DNA from: Scedosporium boydii
Lineage: Eukaryota > Ascomycota > Sordariomycetes > Microascales > Microascaceae
Assembly (NCBI GenBank): GCA_002221725.1
Contig: NJFT01000040.1
Span: 168,566-232,565, forward strand
Length of the DNA: 64,000 bases
Direction: 5' to 3'
This document shows, piece after piece, positions 10,886 through 53,615 of this stretch. Under the pieces are notes generated by a model. It was not told where the DNA came from, ran no database searches, and was given only the letters and a program-made list of their open reading frames with translations. How positions within the stretch are numbered: the stretch's first letter is position 1; the number at the start of each line of letters is the position of its first letter. The position numbers and the translations under genes are program-made.

Positions 10886-11878
10886 TCAAAGTTTACTAAC
10901 CCAAGAAGGCGACCGCTTGCCCAAAAACGCAGCAATTCCCTCCTTGGAATCCTCGCTCTTTGCGTGAAGTGCCATTACTCGTCCTGCCCAAGCGGCCGCC
11001 TCCTCATAGCCATCGCCCTCAGCCGAGCCAAGCGTCTCATACGCGTCGTCGAGGGGACCCCGGATGCTCAGCTGCGTCCAGTACGCCCACTTTCCAGCCG
11101 CCTGCTGCTGCGGCGACATTTGGGCTAATCTCTCGATTATGGACTTGACGCGAACTTCAAAAGCTACCGAGGCGGCCTCTGGTGACGGGTCAGACTCCGG
11201 GACTTGGACGATATCCACGGCTCCTCCGATACTGGAAGCTTTTACCGGCTCTGTGGTTGCTAGGAGGCGGTAGGCCTGGCCGGGTGGCAAGCGGCGGGAC
11301 ACGGCCGCCGATGGGCTTGTGCATGGCAAGCCGATCTTGGCCCCTGGGAGAGAGAACTCGGTCGTCGCCAGGGCGATGGGGAAGTCAGTCGTCATCGCGA
11401 GCTGGAATCCTGCAGCAGTGGCGAGGGCATGGATCGGGCACACAACGAGGGCGGGACTCCTCCGAATCATCGACATGACCTCTGCGCAGAGTTGAAAGAG
11501 GCGCTTGACGTCTTCGTGGCTTAGTTGAGCCATCTCCTTCAGGTCGTGGCCCGACGAGAAGACGGGGCCTTCGCTGCGCAGCACCAGCACATCTGGGAGA
11601 CCGGCACGCTCCTTACGCCATTCTGCGGCATCGACGAGCCAGCCATACTTGGTCCAGTGCTCGCTCGACGACTTTAGTTTCGCAGCAGATTCCAACTCCT
11701 TGAGAATGGCGGGCTTAAAAGGGGGTAGAAGACGGAGTTGACCGGAGGAAGTCGACGTTAGTGCTTTGGTGAGCTGGTCCTTCAGGTCTTGTAACACGGC
11801 GAGGCTCAGGGCATTGCGCTTCTTGGGGTTGGAGAGGCGGATGTAGGCGACGTTTGGAGGGAGGTTGGGGAGTCTCAT
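10886..11878 (-). CDS. Enoyl-CoA hydratase/isomerase family protein, ECHDC3-like
   Basis: Single exon, 330 aa, crotonase fold. The N-terminal VAYIRLSNPKKRNALSL gives the first core strand. SEGPVFSSGHDLKEM is the usual first oxyanion-hole region, and ICPIHALATAAGF-like VVCPIHALATAAGFQLAMTTD is the second, where classical hydratases carry a catalytic Glu-rich segment. The sequence fits the ECHDC3 subgroup better than mitochondrial beta-oxidation hydratases. An insertion of about 60 residues (LLPPFKPAILKELESAAKL...EHWTKYGW) sits between the first strand and the SSGHDLKE motif. Enzyme activity is uncertain because residues corresponding to the classical glutamate pair are not obvious. No close relationship is seen with the hydratase at 32931-33770. 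Confidence 0.85.
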   Translation of the reverse strand: MRLPNLPPNVAYIRLSNPKKRNALSLAVLQDLKDQLTKALTSTSSGQLRLLPPFKPAILKELESAAKLKSSSEHWTKYGWLVDAAEWRKERAGLPDVLVLRSEGPVFSSGHDLKEMAQLSHEDVKRLFQLCAEVMSMIRRSPALVVCPIHALATAAGFQLAMTTDFPIALATTEFSLPGAKIGLPCTSPSAAVSRRLPPGQAYRLLATTEPVKASSIGGAVDIVQVPESDPSPEAASVAFEVRVKSIIERLAQMSPQQQAAGKWAYWTQLSIRGPLDDAYETLGSAEGDGYEEAAAWAGRVMALHAKSEDSKEGIAAFLGKRSPSWVSKL

Positions 11879-12289
11879 GGTGGGTTGGTGATGGCGGGCG
11901 GGCGGGCTTATCAGTGATGATGAAGGATAGCTACTTGGTGTCTCCGAAGACAGATATACCTATGAACAACCAAACAGGCAGTGTAGAAACAATGAATCAA
12001 TGTACTTCTCACTCGGCTGAACCAAAGAGCTCTACAAGTCATATCGTATAGACCTCGGTAATTGATTTAAAGTTTAATAAGGGGAGGAGACCCTGGGTTT
12101 ACCGAGGTATTTAAGAACTATCCGATATCTGGATATCCGAGTCTTCACATTACGGCATATGCAGTTATGCAACGTCCCCGTTGCAGAGGTAAAAAAGACA
12201 TTGAGGGGGGGTCAATCCCTTGAAAACTGTGGGTACATATGAAGGTCTAATCCCTTTGTCTTGAAAATGGGCGGATCTTCTCATTGCTG

Positions 12290-15491: not shown

Positions 15492-16964
15492 TCATTCTTC
15501 TTGTTCTCTACGCTGCGGCCGCAGCTCCTCTTCATCAGCACGGCTCTGCGAACGATCGACCTCTTGATCAATAGTCTCATGAGCGTGCAATCTCATGTTC
15601 ACAAACATGGCCCAGAGCCCCAAATCGTATATGATGCGCAACGCACCGCCAACGACGAACGCAATCCAAAACCTTTGGTGTCCCGCCAGCGCTCCAGTAA
15701 AGGACGGCCCTACCGTCATCGACAGCGTTCGGAGAGTGCTCGTGATCCCCATGACCGCCGTGCGTTCTTCGGGCTTCACGATGGCGGCGATGAAGGCCGC
15801 TCTCGGCGCCTGGTCCATGTTATTCAGGCCCATGCGGACGTAGAGGAGTATAATGGTGAGCACGAGTCCGTGAGGTGCGGGAAAGAAAAGAACGGCAGCC
15901 GAGGACGGCAGGTGCGTAAAGACCATGGTGTTTAGGAGACCTAGGTAGTTGCAGAGGGGTCCGGCAAATACCGTTGATACGGTTCCGAGGATGAGCGCCG
16001 TCGACATGATGTCTCCGAGAGCCGCCTTGGACAGGTGAAATTTTTGATCGAGGAAATATGTCGTTAGAGTTTGGGAAACCATGCCGTCCGCCAGGGAGTC
16101 TACGGCAAGGAGGAACCACAGCTTGTACATGGTGGAACGCGTGGACGAAGAGATTTGGGAGAAGCGACCCTTGGGCTTTGGCTCGTTCGTTTCGACAAAG
16201 TCCTCGTCATCGGTTTCTTCGTTCTCGTTAAGTAGGCCTTGGGCTAATTCGTCCGAGGTTTCCTCTTTTGATACCGTCTTTTGGATTTCGCATTTGTCGC
16301 TCAAGAAGAAGGCGAAGATCATGTTCAACAGGCCCGTGATGATATAAATTAAAAACGTCGCGTGATAGGTACGCACAAGGGACCACCCTTCGCGAGCCTT
16401 GAGTGCCTCGACGAATCTTCCCGCAAGCTCCGTGCCCGCAGCGGACCCGAGACTCGAGCTCGTCACGTACCACGACAAAACGTGAGCCCTCGTCTTGGAC
16501 GTCGTGAGATGGGACAGCATCGACTCTTCAATTGCGCGAAATGGACCAAAATCGCCACCGCTAGCACTCACAACCCCGACGACAGCAGCGACGAGGAGGA
16601 TCCAGAAATTTTCGAACACGTAGAACACGGCGCCCGAGAGAGCCATGAGCAAACCACCGGCGAAAATGACACGACGACGCCCGAGGCCGTCGGCCATCAG
16701 AGTAATCAAGAGACCGAGTACGACATCGCCGAGGAGGGTCAAACTCATGAACAGACCGATGCGGAAATCGGAAAATCCGAGCTCGGAGAAGAACAGGGCT
16801 ATCGTGAGGGACACGGCGCCGAAAGCGAACATGCGGGTCGTCCGCGAAAGAATGACGAGGAGCGCATCGAGGCCGGTGAGGTAGACGGAGGCGATGCCCG
16901 ATTCTTTGTACAGCCAGACGGCGGACTTGCTGAGGGAGGGTGAGCGTGCCCGTTGGTTAGCCAT
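15492..16964 (-). CDS. Major facilitator superfamily transporter
   Basis: Single exon, 490 aa. Twelve hydrophobic segments can be placed in two halves, split by an acidic cytosolic loop (LLNENEETDDEDFVETNEPKPKGR). The loop-2/3 signature appears as LMADGLGRRRVIFAGG (compare GxLaDrxGrRxxl). The second half has a matching CNYLGLLNTMVF. The C-terminus is charged (RSQSRADEEELRPQRREQEE). It is unrelated to the sugar-porter family member at 18267-20243: it lacks PESPR and PETKG motifs. Substrate cannot be read from the sequence. The start is the first in-frame Met, shortly before the first helix. Confidence 0.88.
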   Translation of the reverse strand: MANQRARSPSLSKSAVWLYKESGIASVYLTGLDALLVILSRTTRMFAFGAVSLTIALFFSELGFSDFRIGLFMSLTLLGDVVLGLLITLMADGLGRRRVIFAGGLLMALSGAVFYVFENFWILLVAAVVGVVSASGGDFGPFRAIEESMLSHLTTSKTRAHVLSWYVTSSSLGSAAGTELAGRFVEALKAREGWSLVRTYHATFLIYIITGLLNMIFAFFLSDKCEIQKTVSKEETSDELAQGLLNENEETDDEDFVETNEPKPKGRFSQISSSTRSTMYKLWFLLAVDSLADGMVSQTLTTYFLDQKFHLSKAALGDIMSTALILGTVSTVFAGPLCNYLGLLNTMVFTHLPSSAAVLFFPAPHGLVLTIILLYVRMGLNNMDQAPRAAFIAAIVKPEERTAVMGITSTLRTLSMTVGPSFTGALAGHQRFWIAFVVGGALRIIYDLGLWAMFVNMRLHAHETIDQEVDRSQSRADEEELRPQRREQEE

Positions 16965-18266
16965 TGCGGGAGGGTTACGGGGGCGATGGACGGGATGGAC
17001 GGGACATTTGGGTTCTTTGCGCGAATGAGCGGAGAAGCATTTGAAAGAAGAACGGTAAGAGTTTTTCTAGGCAAGTCTTTTTTTATCGCTTTTTTCTGGT
17101 TCGTTGGTTTCCTCGTGCATTGCTCCGCTCCGAAATGCGGAGATGGCGCGAGCGGTGTGGCTGGATCGGATCTCTCGGCATCAACGTCGGCTTTTAGACC
17201 GAGCGCCCGCCGTAGCAATCCTGAAAAGGTCCCAACTCTAGCATTTGCTGGGTTTTACTTGCTCCACTTTAAACATTGGGGTATTTGATTTGCAGAGGTC
17301 TCCGGGTGAGGTTCCATCGCATAGACCTTCTGCTGGTTGAGCGGGTCTGGAAGGAAGAAATGACCCAAATTTGGCCATGATGACACCTTCTAGACAGGCA
17401 ATAACGCACAGAATGTGAAAATCCAACTAGTTTAGGAAGTTCTCATGGTTATGTTTAAGAAACACTCTAGATTAGGGTGAGTTACTCGCTGGTATCTTGG
17501 ATAAAGCCGAAGCCTTCCTTTGTCTCGGTGATAAGCTTTAGTTTACAGCTAAAAGTCCAAGACTGCTATTGCAATTCTCTTCTTCTTGGATTGACATGCT
17601 GACCAAGATTATTTACTTGTTAAAATAGTAACAATAGATCATTTCAATACATCATCAGTTGATGTGATATACAACCCGAGATTAATGAACCGTAGGCAGT
17701 ATAACTCTCCCAATAGCGTCCAGTTCACAGCCTGCTATCTTTCCGCCGCGGCTTCCTCTTCTCGACAAAACTCGCAAATCCAAATGTTTACAGAAAACTT
17801 CGATTACAGCGCCCCGCATCCCTTTGTCAGTCTCTTGGGTTGACTTGTATATTTCCCGAGCCGCCTCAAGGAAATAATCTGTTGACTAGTGCTTCTTAGC
17901 TGCCATCCGAGAGGACGGAGACGTATAGGCTGTAATGCTCGACAAGTTTTCTGATCTGCTTCTGTTTTCGTAAAGAGGAATAGTCATTCTGGCAGAATAT
18001 GTGTCTACAGGCATAAGAGACACACTCTCCCACAGACCGAGAGTATGCCTTTAGCAAGAAGGGGAGTGTAGATGATGGAGATGTAGAACGATGATCAATC
18101 TTGATAAATAAAAGTCTCCCTGGCAACCTAGTGGCTAAATATCATTGAATCTGGGAACACAGAACCAGGGATGTTCCTGCAACGTCCTGGAGTTGACTAG
18201 AGTTGGCCTTATTTTCTTGTCGTTCCCAGGCGGATTGAAGTAGAATTATTGACCCTGATAGACTCT
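16965..18266. other. Intergenic region holding a hydratase gene relic
   Basis: No intact gene is seen. The stretch contains the relic at 17671-17778 described separately. The rest includes the promoter of the MFS gene at its left end and the 3' UTR of the sugar transporter at its right end. Confidence 0.4.
17671..17778 (-). pseudogene. Relic of the 3' end of an enoyl-CoA hydratase gene
   Basis: This stretch aligns with 32871-32983, which covers the last codons, stop and 3' flank of the intact hydratase gene at 32931-33770. On the minus strand it still encodes a FVEKR.PR.KDS.L tail and stop (stop at 17725-17727). In the 54 coding-side bases I compared there are seven differences and all are transitions. 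That is consistent with an old duplicate altered by C-to-T mutation (RIP-like) or with ordinary decay. Upstream of the tail the frame is interrupted, so no functional protein is expected. Confidence 0.78.
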
Positions 18267-20243
18267 CTAAACTTCCTCAACAAGTTCTGCTGTCTTCTTT
18301 TCAGATTCCATGTATGAGGACTTTTGCTTCAATTCATCTTGGTAGAGAGCCTGGGCGCTCTTGGTCTCAACGGAACCGAACTTGCGCAGAGGGGCGCCGC
18401 TGGCGAAGAGCTGGTCGACCTCCTCGAGAGTACGACCCTTGAGCTCGGGGATGAAGAAGAAAGTCAGGACGACCATGATGACATTGATGGCACCATAGAT
18501 GAATCCGACCTTGGCGCCGAGGTTCGCGTATTGCTCGTTGATAAGATACGGGATCGTGAAAGACGTGACGAAGGTGGTTAGAACTGAGATAACACTCGCT
18601 AGGAGGTTGGTTTTCTCCTTTAGGCGTGAAGCGGCAGCTTCGGACACGACGACGTAGGATCTGGAATGAAAGATTTTGTCAGAAAAGGGTCAACCGATAG
18701 GTTAAATCGCAGTAACCGGATAAAATTCCACGTACGCAGGCGCCCAAGATAAGTTAAAGAAAAACTGGAACAGCATCACAGAAGCAACCACCAGCCCTTT
18801 TTCCGCCGAGTTGAGGTTGCTGGAAGAACCCATTCCGCCGAGGACGAAAAGCCAAAGGGCCATGAGTGCGCCTCCGACCATCAGAATGGGCCTTCGGCCG
18901 ATCCCATCGATAAAGGACCACGTAAAGAAAATGGCTACCAGGGAGAGAATATTTTGGATGATGTTGAACAAGAAAGACTTGTCGCCGAATCCTTGAGATT
19001 GATAAAAGACCACGCCGTACTGCGAGGGGAAAGCCTGGCCAGTGATTTGCTGACCGAACATTGCGAGCACTGCGACGGCAGTTCGAGCCTGTAGAATGTT
19101 TGTGTGAGCGAAGCAAGTGAAAGAGGGAAGCTTAACGTGGGTGTTATCGGGGAGCGCGGCGGCTATATTTGACGCGCAAACAGCAACTAACTCTGTTCGT
19201 CCGATTAAACACTTCGGACCATGTGCCTTTCTCCTCGTTATCGTTTATATGTATCAGGGCCTCGATCTCCAGCTGGATTTCGTCATCGCTGTCTCCGGGC
19301 CTCAGCTTCCGCAAGTTCTTTGTGGCTTCCTCTCGCCTGCCGCGCCTTAACAGCCAGCGGGGTGACTCAGGGACAAGAGGCAGCAGGACTAAGATGATCG
19401 CGGGGATTAAAAGCTGCAGACCAGTAGGAATGCGCCATCCCGGGTCGCTATCAATGTTCTTCGTGCCGTAGGTAACGCAGGTGGCAACGACTTGCCCGAG
19501 GATGATCATGAGCTGGATTGTCGAGGCGAAAGTGCCGCGGAGCATCTCTGGAGCCGTCTCAGCTTGGTAGATGGGTACGACAACGATGGCCATTCCCGTC
19601 ATCCCGAAAGTGATGATGCGGCCGACGGTGAACATGGCTCTATCGACTGCGGCGACCTGCAGGGTAACACCACTGTTGCGACACGAGTCAGTGTGGATGC
19701 TCTCGAAAATTTGGCGAGGTGGGAATGGGGGAGAGAATGGAAGAGGGAAGAAGATGACGCCACGTACACGAAGGACACAATGCAGAGGCCCAAGATAGCA
19801 GCGCGGCGGCCCCATCTCTCAGCGATCCAGCCGCACGATATGCAGCCCTTGACGTTATTAGTTTCCACCAAGAATTCCAGTATTATGTATTGGGGGCTTG
19901 CTGCGTACCAGAGCTTTACCGATGAACGGTGTAGCTGTCATTACTGACGACAGCCATCCCGGAAGTTGCCATCTGCCTTTCGCCTCATTGTACTCGCCGA
20001 ATTTGCGACCGAAACTGTTCATAGCTTGCACCCCGGAGAAGATACCGACGTCGTAACCGAAATTGAAGGCACACATTGCCATGTAGCTAGAGCAATTTTG
20101 GTCAGCACGTCCACATCCCACAGACAGGCCATAAAGGGAGGGGTGATGACATACAACATAAGGAAGCCGAGCATCCCATTCAGGTGTCTCAAGCGCTGAA
20201 TGAGAGACATGTCGCTTGGTGTCTGGGACGCTGTGGCAGCCAT
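18267..20243 (-). CDS. Sugar porter (MFS, hexose transporter type), 6 exons
   Basis: Exons on the minus strand are 20155-20243, 19909-20086, 19768-19847, 19192-19672, 18736-19088 and 18267-18660; the product is 524 aa. The sugar-porter motifs appear in order: FNFGYDVGIFSGV in helix 1, ERWGRRAAILG in loop 2-3, YQAETAPEMLRG, PESPRWLLRRGR, GQQITGQAF in helix 7, DGIGRRPILMVGG, and ELKGRTLEEVDQLF as a variant of PETKGRTLEE at the C-terminus. It is a plasma-membrane proton-sugar symporter by family. It is divergent from the zinc-cluster regulator at 21001, with 757 bp between start codons and a repeated CGGTGCGAG element. It is part of a block with a sulfatase and a GH79 enzyme, so an (oligo)uronate or related sugar is a plausible substrate (inference). 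An upstream Met at 20291 would add 16 residues. Confidence 0.92.
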
Positions 20244-20405
20244 CTTGCCGATGATTGCAGACGCGTTTCGTCTCGAGATGACAGGGCGCACGGGGTCTTA
20301 GGAAGTATAGAGTAAGCGAGTCGGAGCGAAACGGTATTTCATCCAAGCTAGGACCAGATATACCACGGAATGTCTCCAGGCTGCCGAACACCACGTCCAC
20401 GAGGA

Positions 20406-20413
20406 TATTTATA
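20406..20413 (-). promoter_or_regulatory. TATA-like box of the sugar transporter
   Basis: TATAAATA on the minus strand, about 165 bp upstream of the start codon at 20243. It is a positional match. Confidence 0.4.
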
Positions 20414-20681
20414 TCTAAACTCCAAAAGGAGTTTGGTAGTCGAGGTTATTCGCTGTTCCACCACACGGCAACCTAGAAAGTTGATGGTGGCCCCACTCCC
20501 CCATCTCCCCATTTCCAGATGTCCTCAATTCCCCAGGCTTTTGCGACTTTACATGGGCCTATTGAGGAATAGAGCTCCAAAGTAAAGCCGGGGTGTGACT
20601 AGCGTGTATTCCACAGTCTTGCCACAGTGATGTCTTGTGTAGTGGAGGCTCTGCCTCAAGGCGGGGGAGCAGGGCGAGATC

Positions 20682-20717
20682 CGGTGCGAGTTGCGGTGCG
20701 AACTGCGATGCGATGCC
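20682..20717 (+). promoter_or_regulatory. Tandem 12-bp repeats with CGGTGCGAG core in the transporter/regulator promoter
   Basis: Three head-to-tail 12-mers: CGGTGCGAGTTG, CGGTGCGAACTG and the weaker CGATGCGATGCC. The element lies 284 bp before the regulator start (21001) and 439 bp before the transporter start (20243). The CGG triplets recur every 12 bp, the kind of spacing zinc-cluster proteins can bind. The same core in the same period occurs at 26674-26728 in the other divergent promoter of the block. Confidence 0.6.
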
Positions 20718-21000
20718 CGCCGATGTCCTTCTGGTGAGGCAACGCTTAACTTAAACTGGTAAGTGGAGGCGTTCCATGTTTTCACGGCACTTGGGATCAA
20801 ATCATACTCACGTGATCGTGATGCCTACGCACCTCTCCCGGTTTCTCTTTGGGGTTCAGCATCCATCTAAAGATTTGGAGCTTGCCATTTGATGTTTCAT
20901 CCCCGGATTGCGACACTAACGGGTCTCCTGCAGAGTAAGACCCACGGCCGGCCTGGCAGCGTTCTCCTGGGTCCATCACCTCGGGCTATGGGTCACGAGC

Positions 21001-24000
21001 ATGGAGCTGTCATCGGAGTCTCCCGCGGATGGCCGGAAGGCCCAAAGAGGTACGTTTGCGATGTGTGTCTCGTCCCCGAGATATCGCTGACGTGGATAAC
21101 ATGGACCCCCTATTGACATACCGTTATCCATAGCATGTATCGTGTGTCGGTCCAGGAAGGTACGTGGTCCATCTCCCCGGCCTTCCCTGCTAAATGTCAG
21201 TCGACATGCACCCTGTTCTCACAATATCTTGGCTATGTAGGTCCGATGTGACAGGGCGCTTCCCGCCTGCCGTAACTGTAGCCGTCTCGGTGTTTCGTGT
21301 CCAGGCTACGACAGTGACCATGAAAGTCTCTCCAGGAGTCAGATGCTCAAGTCGACGGAGGAGATTTTCAGGGCCGCTGGGAAGGAGAAACGCCGGATAG
21401 GTTCCTGTGAGCCGTGCCGGCAGTTAAAGCATCATTGCACTAGGACGAGGCCTTCTTGCAAGAGATGCATATTAAGGGGTCTGGATTGTGTATATGCTAC
21501 CAAATATGATAGGGACAGCTGTAGTAGCAACCTGTCCGTTGCTGCTGATCCATCATCTGATAGCTCACCGGGGCGGAATATTCACCCCCGGTGCCTCGAA
21601 GTTCGTGGCCTGAAGATTGACCTCGAGCAGTGAGTCTTATTCTTCTTGAAACTCGATAGTTCTCCTTTCCCTCTGGACCTGCCTCTCCCTATCACCTTTC
21701 AACCTACCCTTTGCACGTGTCCTACCTGACACCACTCATCGATGCTGTATGTTTCCGCGGTTGCTGGAACTTCTAACTGTTCGATACTTCTGCTGATGTC
21801 TTGTTGATTAAAGGCGATGTTCAGATACGCTACCTGAAGACCCTGTGTTGAGATCTCACCTTATCGCTGCGTACTTTGAGCGAGTCCATCCTCTACGTTG
21901 CCTGTCTTTCATTCATAAGCCCTATTTTATGCATGCCCTGGCTCGCGACAGTATTGTTCAAGACTACAGTGAGCCTCTGTTATACGTTATATGTGCCATC
22001 GGTATAAGGTCGAATCGTTCCCCTTGCTCGCCTGAATATGCAGGAACTTTCCCTTGGCGATCTGAGTTGACATCTGCTGTAGTGTTCTCCTTTCCGATGC
22101 GATTCGATCCCGAACTCTGGAACAACCAGCAGGGGTCCCGATGCCAGGTGAGGCGTGGGCCGAATATGCCCGCAAGAAAGTGCTCTTGGAGGCTCATGTC
22201 CCGACAGTCCAGCATGTCATGGTGAGTCTCCTTTGCGCTCGCTCGCTCGTATCACCTGCAGATCGCCGTATTAACCGTCCTGTCGTAGACAATGGTGCTT
22301 CTTTGCGAGTACAGTATCAAAGCGGACCAACATGCGCTAGCCTTTACACTCTCGGGCTCATTATTTCGATCTCTTCGTCTTCTTGGGTTTGACACCCCAT
22401 CGCGATTTCCAGTAGTCTCGGACACGCCGAGTGAGCGCCTAACCCAAGAGACGGAAAACAGGCTCGCCTGGGCTTGCTTCCATCTCGACCTTTTACTTTC
22501 CTCCGGGGTGGATAAACACTCTTTGTGGCGCGATGACTTCCCCCGAATCCCTCTCCCCTGCTCTAACCAAGACTTTCTCTCCCTTTGCCATTCCACTTCA
22601 TATTTTCTTTCCGACTTCGAAGGTCCTGATACGCTACTTATAATAAGCCAATTAGACCTGCCCGCTCTTTCAACCATTTTGATTCGATTGCGATCCATGG
22701 TCCTCAGGTATTTTTTTTCCCTGTTTCCATTTCGTTGAATGCGTCGGATATTCGGAAAAAAAAAAAAAAAATAAAAAAAAAATAAAGTTGGCTCACGGCG
22801 TAATAGACTGATCCGCACTACACCATCCGCCGATTCTCGTATATGGGAGCCGTCTTCTCCCTTCAGGACAGCATTACAGCAGCTGGAATTGTTCTATATG
22901 CACCTCCCCACCAGATTTCAGCTAACAGACCTCAATATGTACATGCACGACGATCAGCATGTAATTGGGGCAGTCGTCTTTTTGCATCTGATATATCACG
23001 GTGCCATAGTTGACCTCACCAGGATAGCCTTGGCCGGTTTCAACTTTCCACTCGCCGAGGCGTTCTCCAACGCTCCCATCGAGTTTCAATCGGACTTGCA
23101 GAGGCGCTGCCGCCTCCACGCAAACGAAGTCTCCAGTATCATTGAAAAGGGCTTACTTCACGGCAAGGCTGCTTTTGATGAGCCCTTTTGCGCTAGTGTT
23201 GCCATGGAATCAGCCAAGATCCAAATCATCTACTCTGCGACGGCGGAAAACTGCTCCCAGTCGATAGAGACTACCAGACATAACCTGAAGACGAACTTAC
23301 GGCTATTGGAGTTATTACATGCTGGAAAAGAAGGTCAGAGTCCATATGTGAGTAACTCGCGTGCTATCATGGCTTCATGATTGTCCCATTGGGCCTGCTT
23401 TACCTCTAACAATGGGTAGATTCGGACCCTGCTACCCCTCTGCACGGTATTCGGCTTCCAGGACGTAGCGGAAGAATGGGGAGGACTTACACCGTATGGA
23501 CTTTTAGATTTTCTTTCGCCACCTTACCCCTGCCTTTGAGTGGCCGCATTCTTCATGAACAAGGACTGACTAACTCACTCGCCTTAACAGTTCTCCCACC
23601 CACTCTGCAGAAGTTACCGGCGACGCTGCGATAAATCACTTGTCAAGCATCGCTCCGTTCCGTCAGGCTCAGTCTGAGGTGAAGGCCAAGAGGCAGGGTA
23701 TTGCGACTAATAGTGCTGCCTCATCGTCACCGGACCCCACTGGGAATACTGGCATAATACCAGGTCAACCGCAACAGCCCGTGCCGACTCATACCCCCCG
23801 CGCGAACTTAGCCATGCCTGCGATGGATCAGTGGATGAATGCCAACGTGCCTAGAGATCAGGGAATATCCCCACATTCCCAGAGCCCAATAGCTACACAG
23901 CATCCGACCGGCAGTGGCAATGGCGCCGAAGGCTTGAGCATGGGAGAAGCCCCAGCATCCCTGCAAAGTGCTTCTTTTCAAGGAGTACAACCATCGATGG

Positions 24001-24116
24001 AAGATTATATCAGGACGGCAAATAGCATGTATGATTATCTGACTTGGGATGTGTCTGAAATGTCCGAACTACCGCCGTTTGTTACATTTAATCTCCCGTG
24101 CCATCCGGACGGGTAA
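21001..24116 (+). CDS. Zn2Cys6 transcription factor with two zinc clusters and a fungal_trans-like middle domain
   Basis: Nine exons (21001-21049, 21134-21159, 21241-21629, 21814-22008, 22083-22221, 22289-22707, 22867-23347, 23420-23493, 23591-24116) give 765 aa. Two complete CX2CX6CX6CX2CX6C clusters are present. Cluster 1 has Cys 18, 21, 28, 35, 38 and 45; cluster 2 has Cys 81, 84, 91, 98, 101 and 108. Both have basic residues between Cys 2 and Cys 3. The middle region fits the fungal transcription factor regulatory domain: AAYFERVHPLRCLSFIHKPYF, then CEYSIKADQHALAFTLSGSLFRSLRLLGFDTPS and NRLAWACFHLDLLLSSG. The C-terminal 170 residues are Ser/Pro/Gln-rich, as in an activation region. The start at 21001 is the frame that reaches cluster 1; an ATG 14 bp upstream is out of frame. 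The regulator sits inside the sulfatase/GH79/transporter block and is probably its pathway-specific regulator (inference). Confidence 0.92.
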
Positions 24117-24157
24117 GCTAGACTAAAGCACTGGCACCGATATATCTATCTATGTCG

Positions 24158-26200
<2,043 letters not shown>

Positions 26201-26673
26201 TCAGAGTTCAAGTTGCCGACCAAGGTGCACAGCTGTGTAGTTTTATGGCGGAACAACTGGACCCTAAGCAACGTAAAAGTGCGCAACAGTGCTGCCGTTC
26301 TCACCTTAATTGATATTGGCCGGCCATCGGGGCCTCCTCTCTCAGCGGTCAATGGAACCCCTCAAAGCTATTTGATTCTTCTTAACTGGGTCCTGTGGGA
26401 CCTTGTGGGGTGCGGTCTTGGATCTCGGCCCTCGCGTCGAGGACCAAGGCGGTATCATGTAAGTCATACTATGTACTACACCGGAAGAAAGGGACGGAAT
26501 TTTCTGAGGCCTGGAGGACTTCGTAGTTTAGATGGAGTAGACCGGCCGCGTCGCCTACTTCAGTACCCTGGCCCATAATTCATAGTCCAGGAAGCCCTGC
26601 CAATGCCAGCATTGGAGATCAAATCTTGAGCTACCGATCTGTTTAGTGGTGTGCAAATCAAGCTATCTCTGGT

Positions 26674-26728
26674 TGGTGCGAGTTGCGACCCATCATGCGA
26701 AGTCCGGTGCGAGCTCCGGTGCGAGCTC
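26674..26728 (+). promoter_or_regulatory. CGGTGCGAG tandem repeats in the sulfatase/GH79 promoter
   Basis: A perfect head-to-tail pair of CGGTGCGAGCTC (26705-26716 and 26717-26728) is preceded at 26674 by TGGTGCGAGTTG. The core and the 12-bp period match the element at 20682-20717. The pair lies 649 bp from the sulfatase start (26056) and 518 bp from the GH79 start (27246). Confidence 0.6.
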
Positions 26729-27145
26729 CTCTCAAAAGATCACCGGACTCGATAGTGACACCAAGGTGTGCTAGTCGCCTAATTTCCCATGGGGATATTT
26801 GGAGGCCCCATGGAGTAATGATGTAATTAAAATGCGGGGAAGTTTGGGGCAATGGTAGGCTACGGCGAGGGCTGGTTTCTGGTACTGCCTTGATGAATAG
26901 CAGCTTTTCTGTCTCTTGGCTGCCACTGCCGAGTCCATGTCACCCACACTCGACGAAGTGCATGCCCGCAAACGAGAAGGATTCATGTTACTATTCAATT
27001 GCACGCGACGTGTTAGTGCTGGCGACTAGTGTAAATAGGATGTAGACCAAGGCGGCATAGACCTCAGCGCTGGGAGGCCAGGTTATGTTGTGCTTTTCGA
27101 GTTAGGATGTAGAGAGACCGCTAGTACTCTCCAAATTCTGCTCTG

Positions 27146-27153
27146 TATATAAG
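27146..27153 (+). promoter_or_regulatory. TATA-like box of the GH79 gene
   Basis: TATATAAG lies about 95 bp upstream of the GH79 start codon at 27246, a usual distance in filamentous fungi. Confidence 0.5.
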
Positions 27154-27245
27154 GAAGATGATTTCCCTTCTTTTCGCACTCATGAGGAAGTATTAATCGA
27201 GAACCACAGACCCTTCCAGTAGTTCTGCCCTTGTCACGACGGATC

Positions 27246-29108
27246 ATGGTGTTCTCATCTTCCCTTTTCGCGGCTGCTTTGATTGCCCTGGCTGGCATTG
27301 CCTCGGCCGAAGGGCACAAGGTCAATGTCAATAGGCTCCTCGCCGTGTCATCACCTGAAACTGTGCCTGTTGGAGCTTCACAGGTCGTGCCGCATGACTT
27401 CGCATCTTTCTCGTTCCCAGCTCACTGGTTCGCGGACTTCTGTGGTGAGGCCTCAACCTCACATTTTGATAATGGAAGAGGGAAAAAGAGCTAACATTGC
27501 CAAGGCAACTCGACGCACCCCAATCTGTTCTCTCGAGACATATTTGATCTCCTCTATTCCAAGACCGGCGCCCACCCGTTCATCCGCGTTGGCGGTACCT
27601 CGACGTGAGTCTAGGCGTGACCTCCTTTCCCATACTTCTCGCCCAATTATAAGCACTGCCTCAAACTTGCAGGCGCTGATATTGCTCTACGTAACACCCA
27701 GCGACCGTGTGTGGTACAATGCATCCCAAGAAATAGCACTCTACAACTGGTGGGACCCTGCAGGAAGTTCTACTACCGAGTATGGCATCCCTGACAAGGT
27801 TTTTATCGGACCCGCCTTTTTCGGCGGCTTCCTCAATTTCCCCGGCTCCCGCTGGTCCTGGCAAGTCAATTTCGGTAACACCTACGGCGTTGAAGGCGGC
27901 CTGGATAACGCAATCAAAGTGGCTGGGCTAGTTGTCGAGCACGTCAAAGACTTCCTAGAGAGCTTTGAGCTTGGGAACGAACCGAACTTGATGCCTTGGT
28001 TCAATCATAGGCATGAGAACTACACTATGGCCGAGTACGTTCGCGAGTGGAATGAATACGCAGATGCCGTCTCGGAGCTGGTTTTGAAAGGAAATCCATA
28101 CGGCCTCGAAGAGACACGTTTCTTCCAAGCTCTTACCACTGCTGGGGCCAGCCATGAAGAATGGAGTGTGTGAGTGGAAATGCGCCATTTCTTTGATCAA
28201 CAGAGACGGGCAACACCATACTAACAACCGTCCCACTTCCCCATAGTCAAAATGCATTCAAGCACGATATTGACTCCAAGGGTCACGTCAAGTCTGTTTC
28301 CTACCACCAGTACGCAGCCGGTAATCAGCCGTGGGTACGCCTCCAGAACTCGTACATGAACCACACAGCAAACGCGGGTAACGTAACCCAATACTCAGAG
28401 GCCGTCGAGTTCTGCCGCTCCAACGATCCGCCCTTGCCTTTTGTTCTTGGCGAGACAAATAGCAATTCGTACAACCTTAATATGGGCCACATTGAGGGAG
28501 TCTTTGGCTCTGCCTTGTGGCTCATAGACCATCTTCTCATGGGCATGGCCGCGAACATTACCCGCTATAACCTCATCCAAGGGACCACGTTCGGATATAC
28601 TGGCTGGGTCCCTATCCCTCGTGACCGCCGCGATCCCTATGTGCGCGCCCCCCTCTACGGCCAGATATTCGCTGCCGACGTCGTGGGTCATCATCCCGAG
28701 GTCCAAGTCTATCCCATCGAGGGGCTCCCGTGGAACATGTCCGCCTACGGTATTTACGAGGCTGGAGAGCTCGCGCGCTACGTTATTATCAATTACGACG
28801 AGTGGAACTCGACCACGCCGTATACGAGGCCCTCACAAAGCATCAACCTCGAGGTGCCGTCTTGGGTTAATCATGTCGAGATCAGACGCCTGACTGCGGA
28901 TGGAGCCAGCGCTGACGAGGGGATCCAGTGGGCCGGGCAAAGCTGGAATTATACGGATGGAAGGCTCGTAAAGAACGGAAGGGAGAAGTTTGAAGTCGCC
29001 GGCGCTGGTAACGGAAGAGCGAAGCTAGCCGTCGAAAGTACCGAAGCGGTGATAGTTTCCTTGGTTAAAAGTCCCGCCTGTAGGCCCCACAGACCCCGGA
29101 ACTATTAA
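27246..29108 (+). CDS. Secreted GH79 glycoside hydrolase (beta-glucuronidase/heparanase family)
   Basis: Exons 27246-27444, 27505-27604, 27702-28169 and 28247-29108 give 542 aa. Signal peptide MVFSSSLFAAALIALAGIASA. The catalytic (beta/alpha)8 domain shows FIRVGGTSTDRVWYN, VFIGPAFFGGFLNFPG, ELGNEPN with the acid/base Glu and FVLGETNS with the nucleophile Glu. A beta-sandwich GH79 C-terminal domain follows (ARYVIINYDEWNST... to AKLAVESTEAVIVSLVKS). Family members remove glucuronic or 4-O-methyl-glucuronic acid from arabinogalactan proteins, flavonoid glucuronides or glycosaminoglycans. Several N-glycosylation sequons are present (NST, NYT, NHT, NIT, NMS). It is divergent from the sulfatase gene and shares its promoter repeats. 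The acceptor at 27701 is chosen because it restores the conserved GGTSTDR motif. Confidence 0.93.
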
Positions 29109-32930: not shown

Positions 32931-33770
32931 TCACAGCTTGCTATCCTTCCACCGCGGTTCCCTCTTCTCGACAAAACTCGCGAGGCCCTCCCTCATATTC
33001 TCCGCCCCGTCGATCCGCCCATACAATCCCTTGCCAAGCAGCTCAGTGCTCGTCGCCGGGCCCATGGCCTCCCAACCCAACGTCAAGCCCTCGCGGCTCG
33101 TAATCACCGAATCGGGACTATTCGCGGCAATCTCCTGCGCCAACCGCAGTGCCTCCGCTACTACGGCGCCCCCATCTTTCGCTTCATCAGTACTAACGAC
33201 AAAGTTGACAAGACCCCACTCCTTCATCTCATGAGGCCCGTACATCCGACCTAAGAGCGCCATCTCCGAAGCCCTTTGCTTGCCGACCGTGCGGATCAAT
33301 CGCGGAAGGGCGCCAGCAAGAGCCACAACACCACGTTTCACCTCCGGTGTGCCGAATTTCACCCCCCGCGTCCCTGCGACGACCATGTCGCAGTTGATGA
33401 CCATCTCCATGCCGCCTCCGAGACAGAGCCCGTTCACGGCCGCGATGACGGGCTTTTTTCCCTTGCGATTCGACAAACCGCCGAATCCGGCCGTCGTGAA
33501 GATCTGGCTACTATCTTTCTTCCCGTCTTTGCTGTTGTTGTTCCATTCCGTGAGGTCGGCACCGGCGCAAAAGGCCCGGCCCGAGCCTGTGATGACGGCG
33601 CATCGGAGGGAGGGCTCGGCGTCGAACCATTCGAAGAGGTGGGTGAGTTCTTTGTGTTGTTGGACGTGGATGGCGTTGAGCTGCTTTGGGCGGTTGAGGG
33701 TGACGAGGAGGACGTGGGGGCCGGGGATGGAGGTGATGGTGTCGACGACTGGCGGCGGTGTAGGAGTCAT
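32931..33770 (-). CDS. Enoyl-CoA hydratase/isomerase
   Basis: Single exon, 279 aa, crotonase superfamily. VLLVTLNRPKQLNAIH is the first core strand. GSGRAFCAGADLTEW is the first oxyanion-hole segment, and VNGLCLGGGMEMVINCDMVVA the second, with the glycine-rich turn and a Glu. TPEVKRGVVALAGALPRLIRTVG follows, and the C-terminal helix ends in VEKREPRW. This is close to typical peroxisomal or mitochondrial hydratases used in fatty-acid or side-chain degradation. The C-terminus KDSKL is a near-match to the peroxisomal tripeptide SKL and in fact ends in SKL, so import into peroxisomes is likely. A partial copy of its 3' end lies at 17671-17778. It has no introns. Confidence 0.92.
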   Translation of the reverse strand: MTPTPPPVVDTITSIPGPHVLLVTLNRPKQLNAIHVQQHKELTHLFEWFDAEPSLRCAVITGSGRAFCAGADLTEWNNNSKDGKKDSSQIFTTAGFGGLSNRKGKKPVIAAVNGLCLGGGMEMVINCDMVVAGTRGVKFGTPEVKRGVVALAGALPRLIRTVGKQRASEMALLGRMYGPHEMKEWGLVNFVVSTDEAKDGGAVVAEALRLAQEIAANSPDSVITSREGLTLGWEAMGPATSTELLGKGLYGRIDGAENMREGLASFVEKREPRWKDSKL

Positions 33771-34881
33771 TGCGACGCTGTCAACTCAGGAGGTTAGGAG
33801 CGAACGGTGAGGTGTGCTTCTTCTCGGACCTGTTTTGCGACCCGAGCCGATTTGGCTGGCATATAATACGCGAGAGATAATATTTGAGATGTCCCCGGAT
33901 TTTTGCTCTTATATGATCTCCAGTATCCACCGCAACAGTTCCCTGGGAATGGAGAGATATACTAGAGATTCTCCAGTTTTATCTCCCCTAGATGCGGAGG
34001 TGATGCGGGGGATCTGCAGCTAAAGAAACCCCAGAGTCTCGGTTCTCCGTCCTGCCTCGGCAACACGTAATGTGAACTCCGGCATAAGTGATCCGGTTTG
34101 TGGCTAACGGTTTCACGCTTATGTATTCACTTTTCTGTCGTTTATTTATTGTCTTATTTTTTTCCCCCCTAAATTATTATTATTTCAAAGCCCGAGAAAC
34201 AATCAGTGGGTGGATGCAAGAGGTGATTACTTCCGACCGGAGCCCCTTTCCAAATCCAATTGATCTTCCGGTGGAGCTTTAAGTCCATGGTGGAACTCTG
34301 GAGCTTCCGAGTTGCCGGCCAGAGGCCAATCCAACTTCTAAAACAAGGGCTGGGCCAGCTGCTGCACAGGAACCCGGGAAGATGTATGATGTATGATGGC
34401 ACGACCCGAACAAGGTAGCCGAGCGAGCTAAGTTCTAAACGCAGCTAAAATTGAAGCTAGATCTCGCCCGGCCTAGTTCAACGCGTGCCTGTTTTCATGG
34501 AATACACGACACGGCTCTACGAAGTATTTGCGAGAGATATTGGCTCCGAGCTTCATATTGGTGATTCAAAGACTGCTAAATCTCCATTACTAACTCAGTT
34601 CTAGGCTTGCAAGATTGAAATGGATAACTTGATTCATCATGGCGTTAAATGTGCTATCTGAAATGATCAGATGACCGAGGCCTGGTTGCCAGTCCTCTCG
34701 ATAATTTCCCCCCTTCTCCGAAGAAGACTAATACTAGGAGATAAATGCTGTCGGGATGTTGGATGCTGCTTATACGGTGGGAGACAGGAGAGGGGATGGC
34801 GGAGAGAAGGCGGGAAATAAATGATGGAAATAGAGAGCGCGTGCACTCAATCGACAAGGACAGATGCTTCTGTCCTCAGCA
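33771..34881. other. Intergenic region, 1.1 kb
   Basis: Left part is the promoter of the hydratase gene (minus strand). Right part is the 3' side of the methyltransferase ending at 34882. No gene or clear repeat is seen. Confidence 0.35.
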
Positions 34882-52255: not shown

Positions 52256-52691
52256 TACTTTCTTGCATTGGCAGATACTTAGCACTAGAGCTAACTAGAG
52301 GTGGCATGGATGAATGCGTGGAATAATGAATGATTATCGAGAGTGGGCTCGTCCTCGACTTCGTAAGTCTAAGTGAATTTGACGCTATAACCACCGCTGG
52401 AAACCATGCTAGTCAAACGACACCTCTTTTGGGTGCGGGCGTTGGCGTTGAGGGTCCTGCAGTCCCTCCAAGTTGAGTTCTGAGAATATTCCTCCGCGCA
52501 ACTCCGCCGTGACGACCCTTACTCGATGCGGAATACCGCCAACAAGAACAGCGGTCTACCGCCGGGACGCGTGTGTTAACTTCATTCGATTAACGGCCCC
52601 GGTATTTGTGTTTCATTAATACACTAAATCGTCGTATTTTTCGTTAGCCTTGCTTTCTCTCAAGACTCTCCAATATTTTGACCAGTTCGCC

Positions 52692-53615
52692 ATGGCTAAT
52701 GCCGTCTTCGTCTGCGGCGCCACCGGAACCCAAGGGGGAGCAGTGACCCGGCACCTCCGACAGGCCGGGATCCCCGTTCACGCCCTTGTGAGAGATCTCA
52801 GCAAAGCCGGCCAGCTCAGAGATATTGGCGTAACCGTCTTTCAAGGTTCATACGATGACGACAAAGCCTTACGAGATGCCATCAAAGGTTGCAAGTCGGC
52901 GTTCCTCAACTTCGCTCCCTCTTTTACTGATCTCGCCGAGGAGCTGCGTCACGCCAAGGCGGTCCTCGCCGCTTCTAGGGATGCCGGGGTCCAGCACATC
53001 GTCTATTCGAGTTCATTCGGACTAGACGAGGAGAAAGATACACGCCCGGGACTGAACCCGGACGGGATTGTAGCCAAGGTCTACAAAATCAAGAAAGATA
53101 TCATTCGCGAAGTTGCCGGTTTCGACTCGTACACTATTTTACGGCCTGCCAAATTTATGACCGATCTGATCGGCCCTCGAGCGGCGTGGTTCGGAGATCT
53201 CCGTAGGACAGGGATTTTCGAAACGGCTCTGCGTCGAGGAGAAGCCAGCCCGTACGTTGACCCCGACGATATCGGTGCCTTTGCATCCGCGGCTTTGCTA
53301 GACCCGAAGAAGTTTGCGGGGCATCGGGTCGATGTATTTACCGCCATGTTGACACCCGAAGAGCTCGTCTCTATGTTGGCTAAGACTATAGAGAAGAAGA
53401 TGAGTGTTCGCTATTTGTCTGACGAGGAGTTGGAAGAGAGGAAGAAGACCAATTTGTTCCTCGGGGCCCAGATCACGATGAGGGATACGAGTGCGATGGC
53501 CGATATGGACCTTGTGAGATCTTGGGGGGTTCCGTTAGGGTCGTTCCAGGCGTTTTTGGAGAGAGAGAGGAGAGATCTGAATGAGACCTATGCCCAACTT
53601 ACTCCCGGGCATTAG
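52692..53615 (+). CDS. NmrA-like NAD(P)-binding protein
   Basis: Single exon, 307 aa from the Met at 52692 (cgccATGgc). The N-terminal VFVCGATGTQGGAVTRHL is a dinucleotide-binding GxxGxxG motif of the atypical SDR/NmrA type. ALVRDLSKAGQL and GCKSAFLNFAPSF follow. A Ser-rich VYSSSFGLDEE strand lies at the position of the SDR active site, but the YxxxK pair is not obvious, as in NmrA itself. YTILRPAKFMTDL is characteristic of this family. Members sense the NAD(P) redox state or act as small reductases. The upstream in-frame Met at 52650 would lengthen it by 14 residues. Confidence 0.9.
   Translation: MANAVFVCGATGTQGGAVTRHLRQAGIPVHALVRDLSKAGQLRDIGVTVFQGSYDDDKALRDAIKGCKSAFLNFAPSFTDLAEELRHAKAVLAASRDAGVQHIVYSSSFGLDEEKDTRPGLNPDGIVAKVYKIKKDIIREVAGFDSYTILRPAKFMTDLIGPRAAWFGDLRRTGIFETALRRGEASPYVDPDDIGAFASAALLDPKKFAGHRVDVFTAMLTPEELVSMLAKTIEKKMSVRYLSDEELEERKKTNLFLGAQITMRDTSAMADMDLVRSWGVPLGSFQAFLERERRDLNETYAQLTPGH

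What the first reader, a model, noticed from the sequence alone, without database searches (positions are those of the whole stretch)
18267..29108. Self-contained sulfatase/glucuronidase block: transporter, dual-zinc regulator, sulfatase, GH79
Four neighbouring genes are arranged as <sugar transporter | regulator> <sulfatase | GH79>. The parts fit a catabolic pathway: secreted GH79 removing (4-O-methyl-)glucuronic acid, an importer, a sulfatase without secretion signal, and a regulator. The sulfatase lacking a signal peptide suggests desulfation after uptake, so the imported compound may be a small sulfated (glucuronide-type) sugar. I know of no described cluster of this make-up in fungi. Substrate and pathway are inference.
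Basis: partly seen in the sequence, partly recalled or inferred. Interest (0 to 1): 0.85.

Follow-up and report, generated by a model that had tools for sequence, protein, structure and literature searches.

The report
Fungal sulfatase-glucuronidase locus with shared promoter repeats
A fungus carries a compact four-gene set (importer, regulator, sulfate-removing enzyme, glucuronic-acid-removing enzyme) whose two shared promoters carry the same rare DNA repeat, and related sulfatase-importer pairs recur across its genome, which points to a little-studied way for fungi to take up and use sulfated compounds.

Summary
Three results go beyond the finding. (1) Both divergent promoters carry a 12-bp-period direct repeat; CGGTGCGA-N4-CGGTGCGA occurs exactly twice in the 42.9-Mb genome, once in each promoter. 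(2) Homologs of sulfatase, GH79 and regulator share contigs in other ascomycetes: 22 contigs hold at least two, 4 all three. (3) In this genome 12 of 21 sulfatase places (window included) lie within 5 kb of a homolog of the transporter; three further loci have a dual-zinc regulator, and one of these carries GH51 instead of GH79. The locus is thus one of a recurrent sulfatase-transporter-regulator module with an exchangeable glycosidase. Best reading: GH79 trims outside, the porter imports, the sulfatase desulfates inside, under one private regulator. The substrate is open; the sulfatase type favours an aryl sulfate at least as much as a sulfated sugar. No experiment supports this yet.

The parts
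18267..20243 (-). MFS sugar-porter-family transporter, 524 aa, 6 exons
   Evidence: Spliced model; Pfam PF00083 over the cut-off on 3 of 4 pieces; PDB matches to STP10, GlcP, XylE-type porters
20671..20716 (+). Promoter repeat array 1 between transporter and regulator: four units at 12-bp spacing (GGCGA at 20673, TGCGA at 20685, 20697, 20709), including CGGTGCGA-N4-CGGTGCGA at 20682-20701
21001..24116 (+). Regulator, 766 aa, 9 exons, two Zn2Cys6 clusters plus fungal transcription factor domain
   Evidence: Model; Pfam; homologs
21136..21300 (+). First Zn2Cys6 cluster of the regulator, interrupted by intron 21160-21240
   Evidence: in the C232 and C158 paralogs the frame opens at the same point inside the cluster
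21406..21489 (+). Second Zn2Cys6 cluster, 63 residues after the first
   Evidence: spacing in homologs
24158..26056 (-). S1-type sulfatase, 605 aa, 2 exons, CSPTRS active site, no signal peptide
26675..26727 (+). Promoter repeat array 2 between sulfatase and GH79: TGCGA at 26684, 26696, 26708, 26720 (12-bp spacing) plus GGTGCGAG at 26675; CGGTGCGA-N4-CGGTGCGA at 26705-26724
27246..29108 (+). GH79 glycoside hydrolase, 542 aa, 4 exons, signal-peptide-like N-terminus, catalytic Glu in GNEPN and GETNS
   Evidence: only PF16862 match in the genome

Best explanation
This is a catabolic locus for a compound carrying both a sulfate ester and a glucuronic acid residue. GH79 is secreted and removes glucuronic acid, or a capped glucuronic acid, outside the cell. 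The MFS porter imports the sulfated remainder or the sulfated sugar. The cytosolic AtsA-type sulfatase then removes sulfate. The dual-Zn2Cys6 protein senses the compound or a product and activates all four genes by binding 12-bp-spaced CGGTGCGA direct repeats in both divergent promoters, including its own. Shown here: gene content, sulfatase without leader, shared and nearly genome-unique repeat, conserved clustering of three of the four families, recurrence of the sulfatase-transporter-regulator module. Inferred: that this regulator binds this repeat, the cellular location of the enzymes, the order of steps, the substrate.
For: Repeat CGGTGCGA-N4-CGGTGCGA: 2 exact hits in 42.9 Mb, one per promoter. 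The looser two-unit pattern: 3 exact hits, 3 of 3 in these promoters; 8 hits at up to 1 mismatch against 2 for the reversed control, 4 here and 4 elsewhere inside open frames of 114-729 aa. Shuffles: both promoters with their best period at the same lag and score at least 14, 0 of 1000; an 8-mer twice in both, 2 of 1000. Clustering elsewhere: 22 shared contigs, 4 with all three families, with consecutive locus tags in Coleophoma, Fusarium decemcellulare and Didymosphaeria and a gap of one in Exophiala sideris. Own genome, window's locus included: 12 of 21 sulfatase places within 5 kb of a transporter homolog and 8 of 21 within 5 kb of a regulator homolog. The five closest transporter paralogs by summed bits are all sulfatase-linked. 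The sulfatase's top five PDB rows are aryl sulfatases at 671-677 bits, among them 1HDH, P. aeruginosa AtsA. GH79 catalytic Glu invariant in 18 of 18 aligned rows.
Against: A 12-mer shared by two promoters of this size is not rare by itself (91 of 1000 shuffles); the case rests on the periodic array. The pattern was chosen after seeing the sites, and at up to 2 mismatches it has 30 genome hits against 38 for its reversed control. 14 of 1225 real 1-kb pairs from the window also share an 8-mer twice, 8 of these 14 in simple sequence. Ten of the 22 shared contigs show sulfatase and regulator without a listed GH79. The five sister sulfatase-transporter promoters read lack the repeat. The transporter was not tested across species. 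No expression data.
Confidence: 0.6

Rival explanations
1. Sulfur scavenging: the unit exists to free sulfate as a sulfur source from soil sulfate esters, and GH79 only exposes the ester. Control would be by sulfur starvation.
For: The closest solved relative is AtsA, and bacterial aryl sulfatases serve sulfur scavenging from soil phenolics (PMC5066984, passages). Sulfatase-transporter pairs recur on 10 contigs of this genome, the window's included.
Against: No Cys3/MetR site ATGRYRYCAT (motif recalled) in either promoter; one palindromic near-site with 1 mismatch in the sulfatase-GH79 promoter. A dedicated regulator and a private repeat suggest substrate induction.
Confidence: 0.2
2. Conjugate scavenging: the locus handles aryl sulfates and aryl glucuronides (plant flavonoid conjugates or animal phase-II conjugates), with GH79 and sulfatase acting in parallel on different conjugates rather than in sequence on one molecule.
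For: The sulfatase goes with S1_4 aryl sulfatases by best match. A glucuronidase plus a sulfatase is the classic deconjugation pair (recalled).
Against: The GH79's best solved match acts on gum arabic side chains (7DFQ; PMC8377490 passages; that 7DFQ is the enzyme FoBGlcA is recalled), and a sister locus carries a GH51 arabinofuranosidase, which points to glycans.
Confidence: 0.2
3. GH79 is an accessory or recent joiner; the functional unit is only sulfatase, transporter and regulator.
For: Ten of 22 shared contigs show sulfatase and regulator without a listed GH79; only one PF16862 match in this genome against many sulfatase-transporter loci.
Against: GH79 shares a contig with sulfatase or regulator on 12 of the 22 contigs, from several ascomycete classes (classes recalled), and its promoter carries the same array.
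Confidence: 0.15
4. Chance neighbourhood of four unrelated genes.
For: Fungal genomes are gene-dense and three of these families are large.
Against: all speak against it.
Confidence: 0.03

Closest known systems
Pseudomonas aeruginosa AtsA (S1_4 aryl sulfatase, PDB 1HDH)
   Same: Match over nearly the full length, 676.7 bits for 1HDH and 677 for 4CXS; ADDLG, TRS, KWHLGL and MSDNGAEG stretches shared in the printed alignment to 4CXS, where the catalytic Cys position reads Ser in that chain; no leader in the fungal protein
   Different: Eukaryotic gene with an intron, next to GH79 and an MFS porter. The review PMC5857272 (passages) says fungal sulfatases appear to lack the formylglycine modification.
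[quoted passage not shown] enzyme FoBGlcA by recall)
   Same: Best solved match; GNEPN and GETNS motifs shared
   Different: Only 71.7 bits. The window GH79 sits in a separate ascomycete group (48-68% identical to 14 of 17 aligned homologs; the other three, two of them Aspergillus beta-glucuronidases, 29-34%)
Fungal L-fucose regulon of FUR1 in Trichoderma reesei
   Same: Zn2Cys6 activator, clustered fucosidase and permease genes in some species, regulation of a beta-glucuronidase gene (PMC12370193, passages)
   Different: FUR1 has one Zn2Cys6 domain; words beginning with 'sulfat' do not occur in the text
Bacterial polysaccharide utilisation loci with sulfatases
   Same: Co-localised hydrolase, sulfatase, transporter and regulator (recalled)
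   Different: Here MFS uptake, Zn2Cys6 control, leaderless sulfatase, eukaryote; no SusCD pair

Membership tests
GH79 | GH79 C-terminal domain PF16862 over cut-off | tested here: met
   84.7 bits against cut-off 27
GH79 | Two catalytic glutamates | tested here: met
   E193 (GNE) and E325 (GETN) invariant in 18 of 18 aligned rows; among all 62 listed homologs, some partial, GNE is in 58 and GETN in 55
GH79 | Beta-glucuronidase activity | not testable with these tools
   No assay; substrate not predictable from a 71.7-bit match
S1 sulfatase, S1_4 type | PF00884 and C-x-P-S/T-R catalytic motif | tested here: met
   185.2 bits; CSPTRS
S1 sulfatase, S1_4 type | Groups with AtsA rather than other subfamilies | tested here: inconclusive
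   Top five PDB rows are 536-residue aryl sulfatases at 671-677 bits including 1HDH, next row 205 bits; AtsA listed as S1_4 in PMC5066984 (passages); no tree with SulfAtlas references
S1 sulfatase, S1_4 type | Activity on sulfate esters | not testable with these tools
   No assay
Fungal Zn2Cys6 regulators | Zn_clus and Fungal_trans domains | tested here: met
   57.9 bits in two stretches, 44.8 bits
Fungal Zn2Cys6 regulators | Single zinc cluster with a following coiled-coil dimer part (usual form, recalled) | tested here: not met
   Two clusters at near-fixed spacing; in the model of homolog P0185 a 14-residue helix joins them and residues 120-151 after the second are of low confidence
MFS sugar porters | PF00083 | tested here: met
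   3 of 4 transporter pieces over the cut-off; 26 of 47 PDB rows are sugar porters, among them the best 20
Fungal catabolic gene cluster | Conserved clustering across species | tested here: met
   22 contigs with at least two of three families, 4 with all three; transporter not testable
Fungal catabolic gene cluster | Co-expression under an inducer | not testable with these tools
   No expression data

The most novel reading that the evidence does not exclude
Ascomycetes carry a whole family of sulfate-ester utilisation loci: a divergent cytosolic sulfatase and MFS porter under a regulator with two rigidly spaced Zn2Cys6 clusters, and an exchangeable secreted glycosidase (GH79 here, GH51 at a sister locus). 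The dual-cluster protein reads direct CGG repeats 12 bp apart within one chain, so that one polypeptide does what other zinc-cluster regulators do as dimers. Each locus has its own private repeat.
Probability: 0.35. Interest if true: 0.85.

Novelty: new variant of a known kind. Interest (0 to 1): 0.7.

Why it matters
How fungi handle organic sulfate esters, a large part of soil sulfur (recalled), is little explored: the review PMC5857272 (passages) names the role of dedicated transporters as an open priority. This locus gives candidate transporters paired with sulfatases, a candidate regulator with a predicted binding site, and an extracellular enzyme that narrows the substrate. The repeat is rare enough that binding and induction can be tested directly. 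If the dual-cluster regulator binds a direct repeat as one chain, that would add a binding mode to a very large fungal regulator class.

Tried and rejected
Signal peptide on the sulfatase: the in-frame hydrophobic stretch at 26057-26200 was considered and set aside because it has no Met, follows a stop, and (read by eye) has no AG acceptor between that stop and the hydrophobic part; no such leader was seen in the 92 of 120 homologs with the start motif.

Wider regulon: the four 1-mismatch motif hits elsewhere (L012, L013, L015, L016) lie inside stop-to-stop open frames of 114, 159, 729 and 210 aa and suggest no further target. Five sister sulfatase-transporter promoters lack the repeat.

Three TGCGA units at 12 bp: 10 exact genome hits, 3 in these promoters; the other 7 are on C7, C12, C50, C284 and C339 and look like simple repeats by eye. 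At up to 1 mismatch there are 32 hits against 7 for the reversed control.

Larger cluster: of ten neighbouring ORFs scanned, five have a Pfam match (But2, two enoyl-CoA hydratases, MFS_1, NmrA); nothing ties them to the four genes.

PF00083 as an exact denominator: only 9 of 300 candidates were scored, so chance was computed with 60 loci and with 300 as a rough upper density. NCBIfam matched seven sulfatases, all below its cut-offs.

Not done: cross-species reading of the promoters and of the transporter, since no fungal genomes are held; no negative-control list for the contig-sharing count; no phylogeny of transporters or regulators; the structure model (1 of 2 jobs) was not compared with the PDB; the whole regulon of the sister regulators.
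Full report
OBSERVATION. The window lies in contig C40 of an unnamed 42.9-Mb genome of 442 contigs. The four genes are intact and the spliced models read through without stops. Pfam gives Sugar_tr (3 of 4 pieces over the cut-off), Zn_clus twice with Fungal_trans, Sulfatase and Glyco_hydro_79C. Arrangement: transporter (-) and regulator (+) diverge from 20244-21000; sulfatase (-) and GH79 (+) diverge from 26057-27245.

PROTEINS. The sulfatase's top five PDB rows are 536-residue aryl sulfatases at 671-677 bits, among them 1HDH; the next row has 205 bits. 1HDH is P. aeruginosa AtsA, listed as S1_4 aryl sulfatase (PMC5066984, passages). The fungal protein has no leader, nor do the listed homologs that keep the start motif (92 of 120; 28 lack it). 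GH79 keeps both catalytic glutamates (18 of 18 aligned rows), has a signal-like start, and is the only PF16862 match in the genome. A crude hydrophobicity test flagged 41 of 59 GH79 homologs that start with Met, but the sulfatase start also scores 1.77 on it, so it does not discriminate. The regulator has two zinc clusters 63 residues apart. Of 54 listed homologs 29 show both by pattern (63 apart in 22, 62 in 2, 67 in 2, 68 in 2, 57 in 1), 17 show one and 8 none; in the alignment of 26, several of the one-cluster rows are cut or altered at the N-terminus. A model of homolog P0185 shows two pairs of short helices at the clusters joined by a 14-residue helix, mean pLDDT per ten residues 69-87 there; mean of the whole 76.2, pTM 0.69.

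PROMOTER REPEAT. The two divergent promoters share an array with a 12-bp period in the same orientation: TGCGA at 20685, 20697, 20709 (GGCGA at 20673) and at 26684, 26696, 26708, 26720. CGGTGCGA-N4-CGGTGCGA has two exact hits in the genome, one in each promoter; at 1 mismatch there are two more, one a further unit here and one on C44; at up to 2 mismatches 30 hits in all against 38 for the reversed control, so only the near-exact matches carry weight. The looser pattern gave 8 hits at up to 1 mismatch against 2 for its reversed control. Shuffles: same best lag with score at least 14 in both, 0 of 1000; an 8-mer twice in both, 2 of 1000; a shared 12-mer, 91 of 1000, so the 12-mer alone is not significant. 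Among 1225 pairs of real 1-kb pieces of the window, 14 share an 8-mer twice, 8 of them in simple sequence. The pattern was chosen after seeing the sites. A fairer statement, read from the list: a two-unit consensus drawn from the first promoter alone finds, at up to 1 mismatch, only the second promoter elsewhere in the genome.

CLUSTERING IN OTHER FUNGI. Equal contig lengths in the three printed homolog lists (120 sulfatases of 7867 hits, 62 GH79, 54 regulators) give 22 shared contigs: 4 with all three, 10 sulfatase plus regulator, 5 sulfatase plus GH79, 3 GH79 plus regulator. In the 21 that bear names the organism agrees; one is unnamed. Contigs of 9.6, 17.7, 22.6 and 31.6 kb show proximity directly. 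Consecutive locus tags do so for Coleophoma (GH79/regulator), F. decemcellulare (GH79/regulator, the 9.6-kb contig) and Didymosphaeria (sulfatase/regulator), with a gap of one for Exophiala sideris (sulfatase/GH79). On long contigs without tags only the shared contig is shown. No control lists were run. Most rows of the lists (101 of 120 sulfatases, 50 of 62 GH79, 37 of 54 regulators) share no contig length; only the best 120 sulfatases were printed and each row stands for a cluster with one longest contig, so this count is a lower bound.

SISTER LOCI IN THE SAME GENOME. Merging matches gives 21 sulfatase, 60 transporter and 34 regulator places. 12 of 21 sulfatase places, the window's included, lie within 5 kb of a transporter homolog (1.8% expected each; 8.7% if 300 candidates are taken as the density) and 8 of 21 within 5 kb of a regulator homolog. 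The 12 are not independent: they fall on 10 contigs. 9 of these 10 pairs are divergent; the window's own locus is the exception, and at C158 a glycosidase gene lies between. Nine of 21 sulfatase places have no transporter within 5 kb; some of these are weak matches (C13, C22, C233) that may be other phosphatase-like proteins, two lie on C232 beside nearer sulfatases. By summed bits the five closest paralogs of the window transporter (C255, C36, C86, C232, C207) are all sulfatase-linked. Not every nearby regulator homolog is shown to be dual-zinc. Both clusters are seen in the C36 regulator (66 apart); C232 and C158 keep the second cluster and the latter part of the first, their frame opening where the window's intron lies. 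At C158 a GH51 gene (PF06964, 88.9 bits) diverges from the sulfatase.

MECHANISM. A leaderless sulfatase beside a porter implies import of the sulfate ester. GH79, the only one that looks secreted, acts outside. The private repeat in both promoters, including the regulator's own, implies common, autoregulated control. A direct repeat of CGG-containing units 12 bp apart fits a protein with two zinc clusters in one chain; this is a proposal. There is no Cys3/MetR site in either promoter (one palindromic near-site with 1 mismatch), and CreA-type SYGGRG sites number 8 and 5 (motifs recalled), which leans towards carbon rather than sulfur control, weakly.

LITERATURE. Ten searches of an open-access library were made; titles and abstract starts of the listed rows were seen (lists capped). 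None of these rows describes a fungal sulfatase-GH79 cluster or a fungal sulfatase-transporter module. Six papers were read in passages only (PMC5857272, PMC8351168, PMC5148876, PMC12370193, PMC8377490, PMC5066984), and the passages describe none. PMC8351168 (passages) gives six sulfatase genes for a marine Emericellopsis and 11 and 22 for terrestrial species, so many sulfatases in land fungi are known. PMC12370193 (passages) shows a single-cluster regulator controlling a Trichoderma beta-glucuronidase. on dual zinc clusters listed 20 of 28 papers; none was opened, so no claim is made that dual-cluster regulators are undescribed. Most subscription journals were not searched.

VERDICT. A real locus with strong signs of co-regulation and conserved clustering; a new variant of a known kind (fungal catabolic cluster). 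Its main interest lies in the recurrent sulfatase-transporter-dual-zinc module and the testable private repeat. The substrate remains open.

Noticed in passing
window 26057-26200 (-): A 48-codon open stretch in frame with the sulfatase ATG reads like a signal peptide but has no Met and follows a stop; a chance pyrimidine-rich 5' UTR or a lost leader.
   Followed up: partly
G000:C158:50977-61402 (L042, L006, L043): Sister locus: Sugar_tr transporter, GH51 arabinofuranosidase diverging from a sulfatase, and a dual-zinc-type regulator; parallel to the window with a different glycosidase.
   Followed up: partly
G000:C232:47509-62702 (L044, L022, L029): Four sulfatase places, a Sugar_tr transporter and a dual-zinc-type regulator within about 15 kb.
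   Followed up: partly
P0134, P0129, P0160: Three GH79 homologs are named 'GTP-binding protein gtr2'; P0134 is 904 aa with PF04670, probably a gene model fused to a neighbour whose name then spread.
   Followed up: no
window 15495-17066 (-), 10889-11959 (-), 32934-33785 (-), 52620-53612 (+): Flanking genes: MFS_1 transporter, two enoyl-CoA hydratase-type proteins, NmrA-like protein; no sign that they belong to the cluster.
   Followed up: partly
G000:C87:6067-8061 (L023, L025): A further regulator paralog with an intact second zinc cluster and no sulfatase match on its contig.
   Followed up: no
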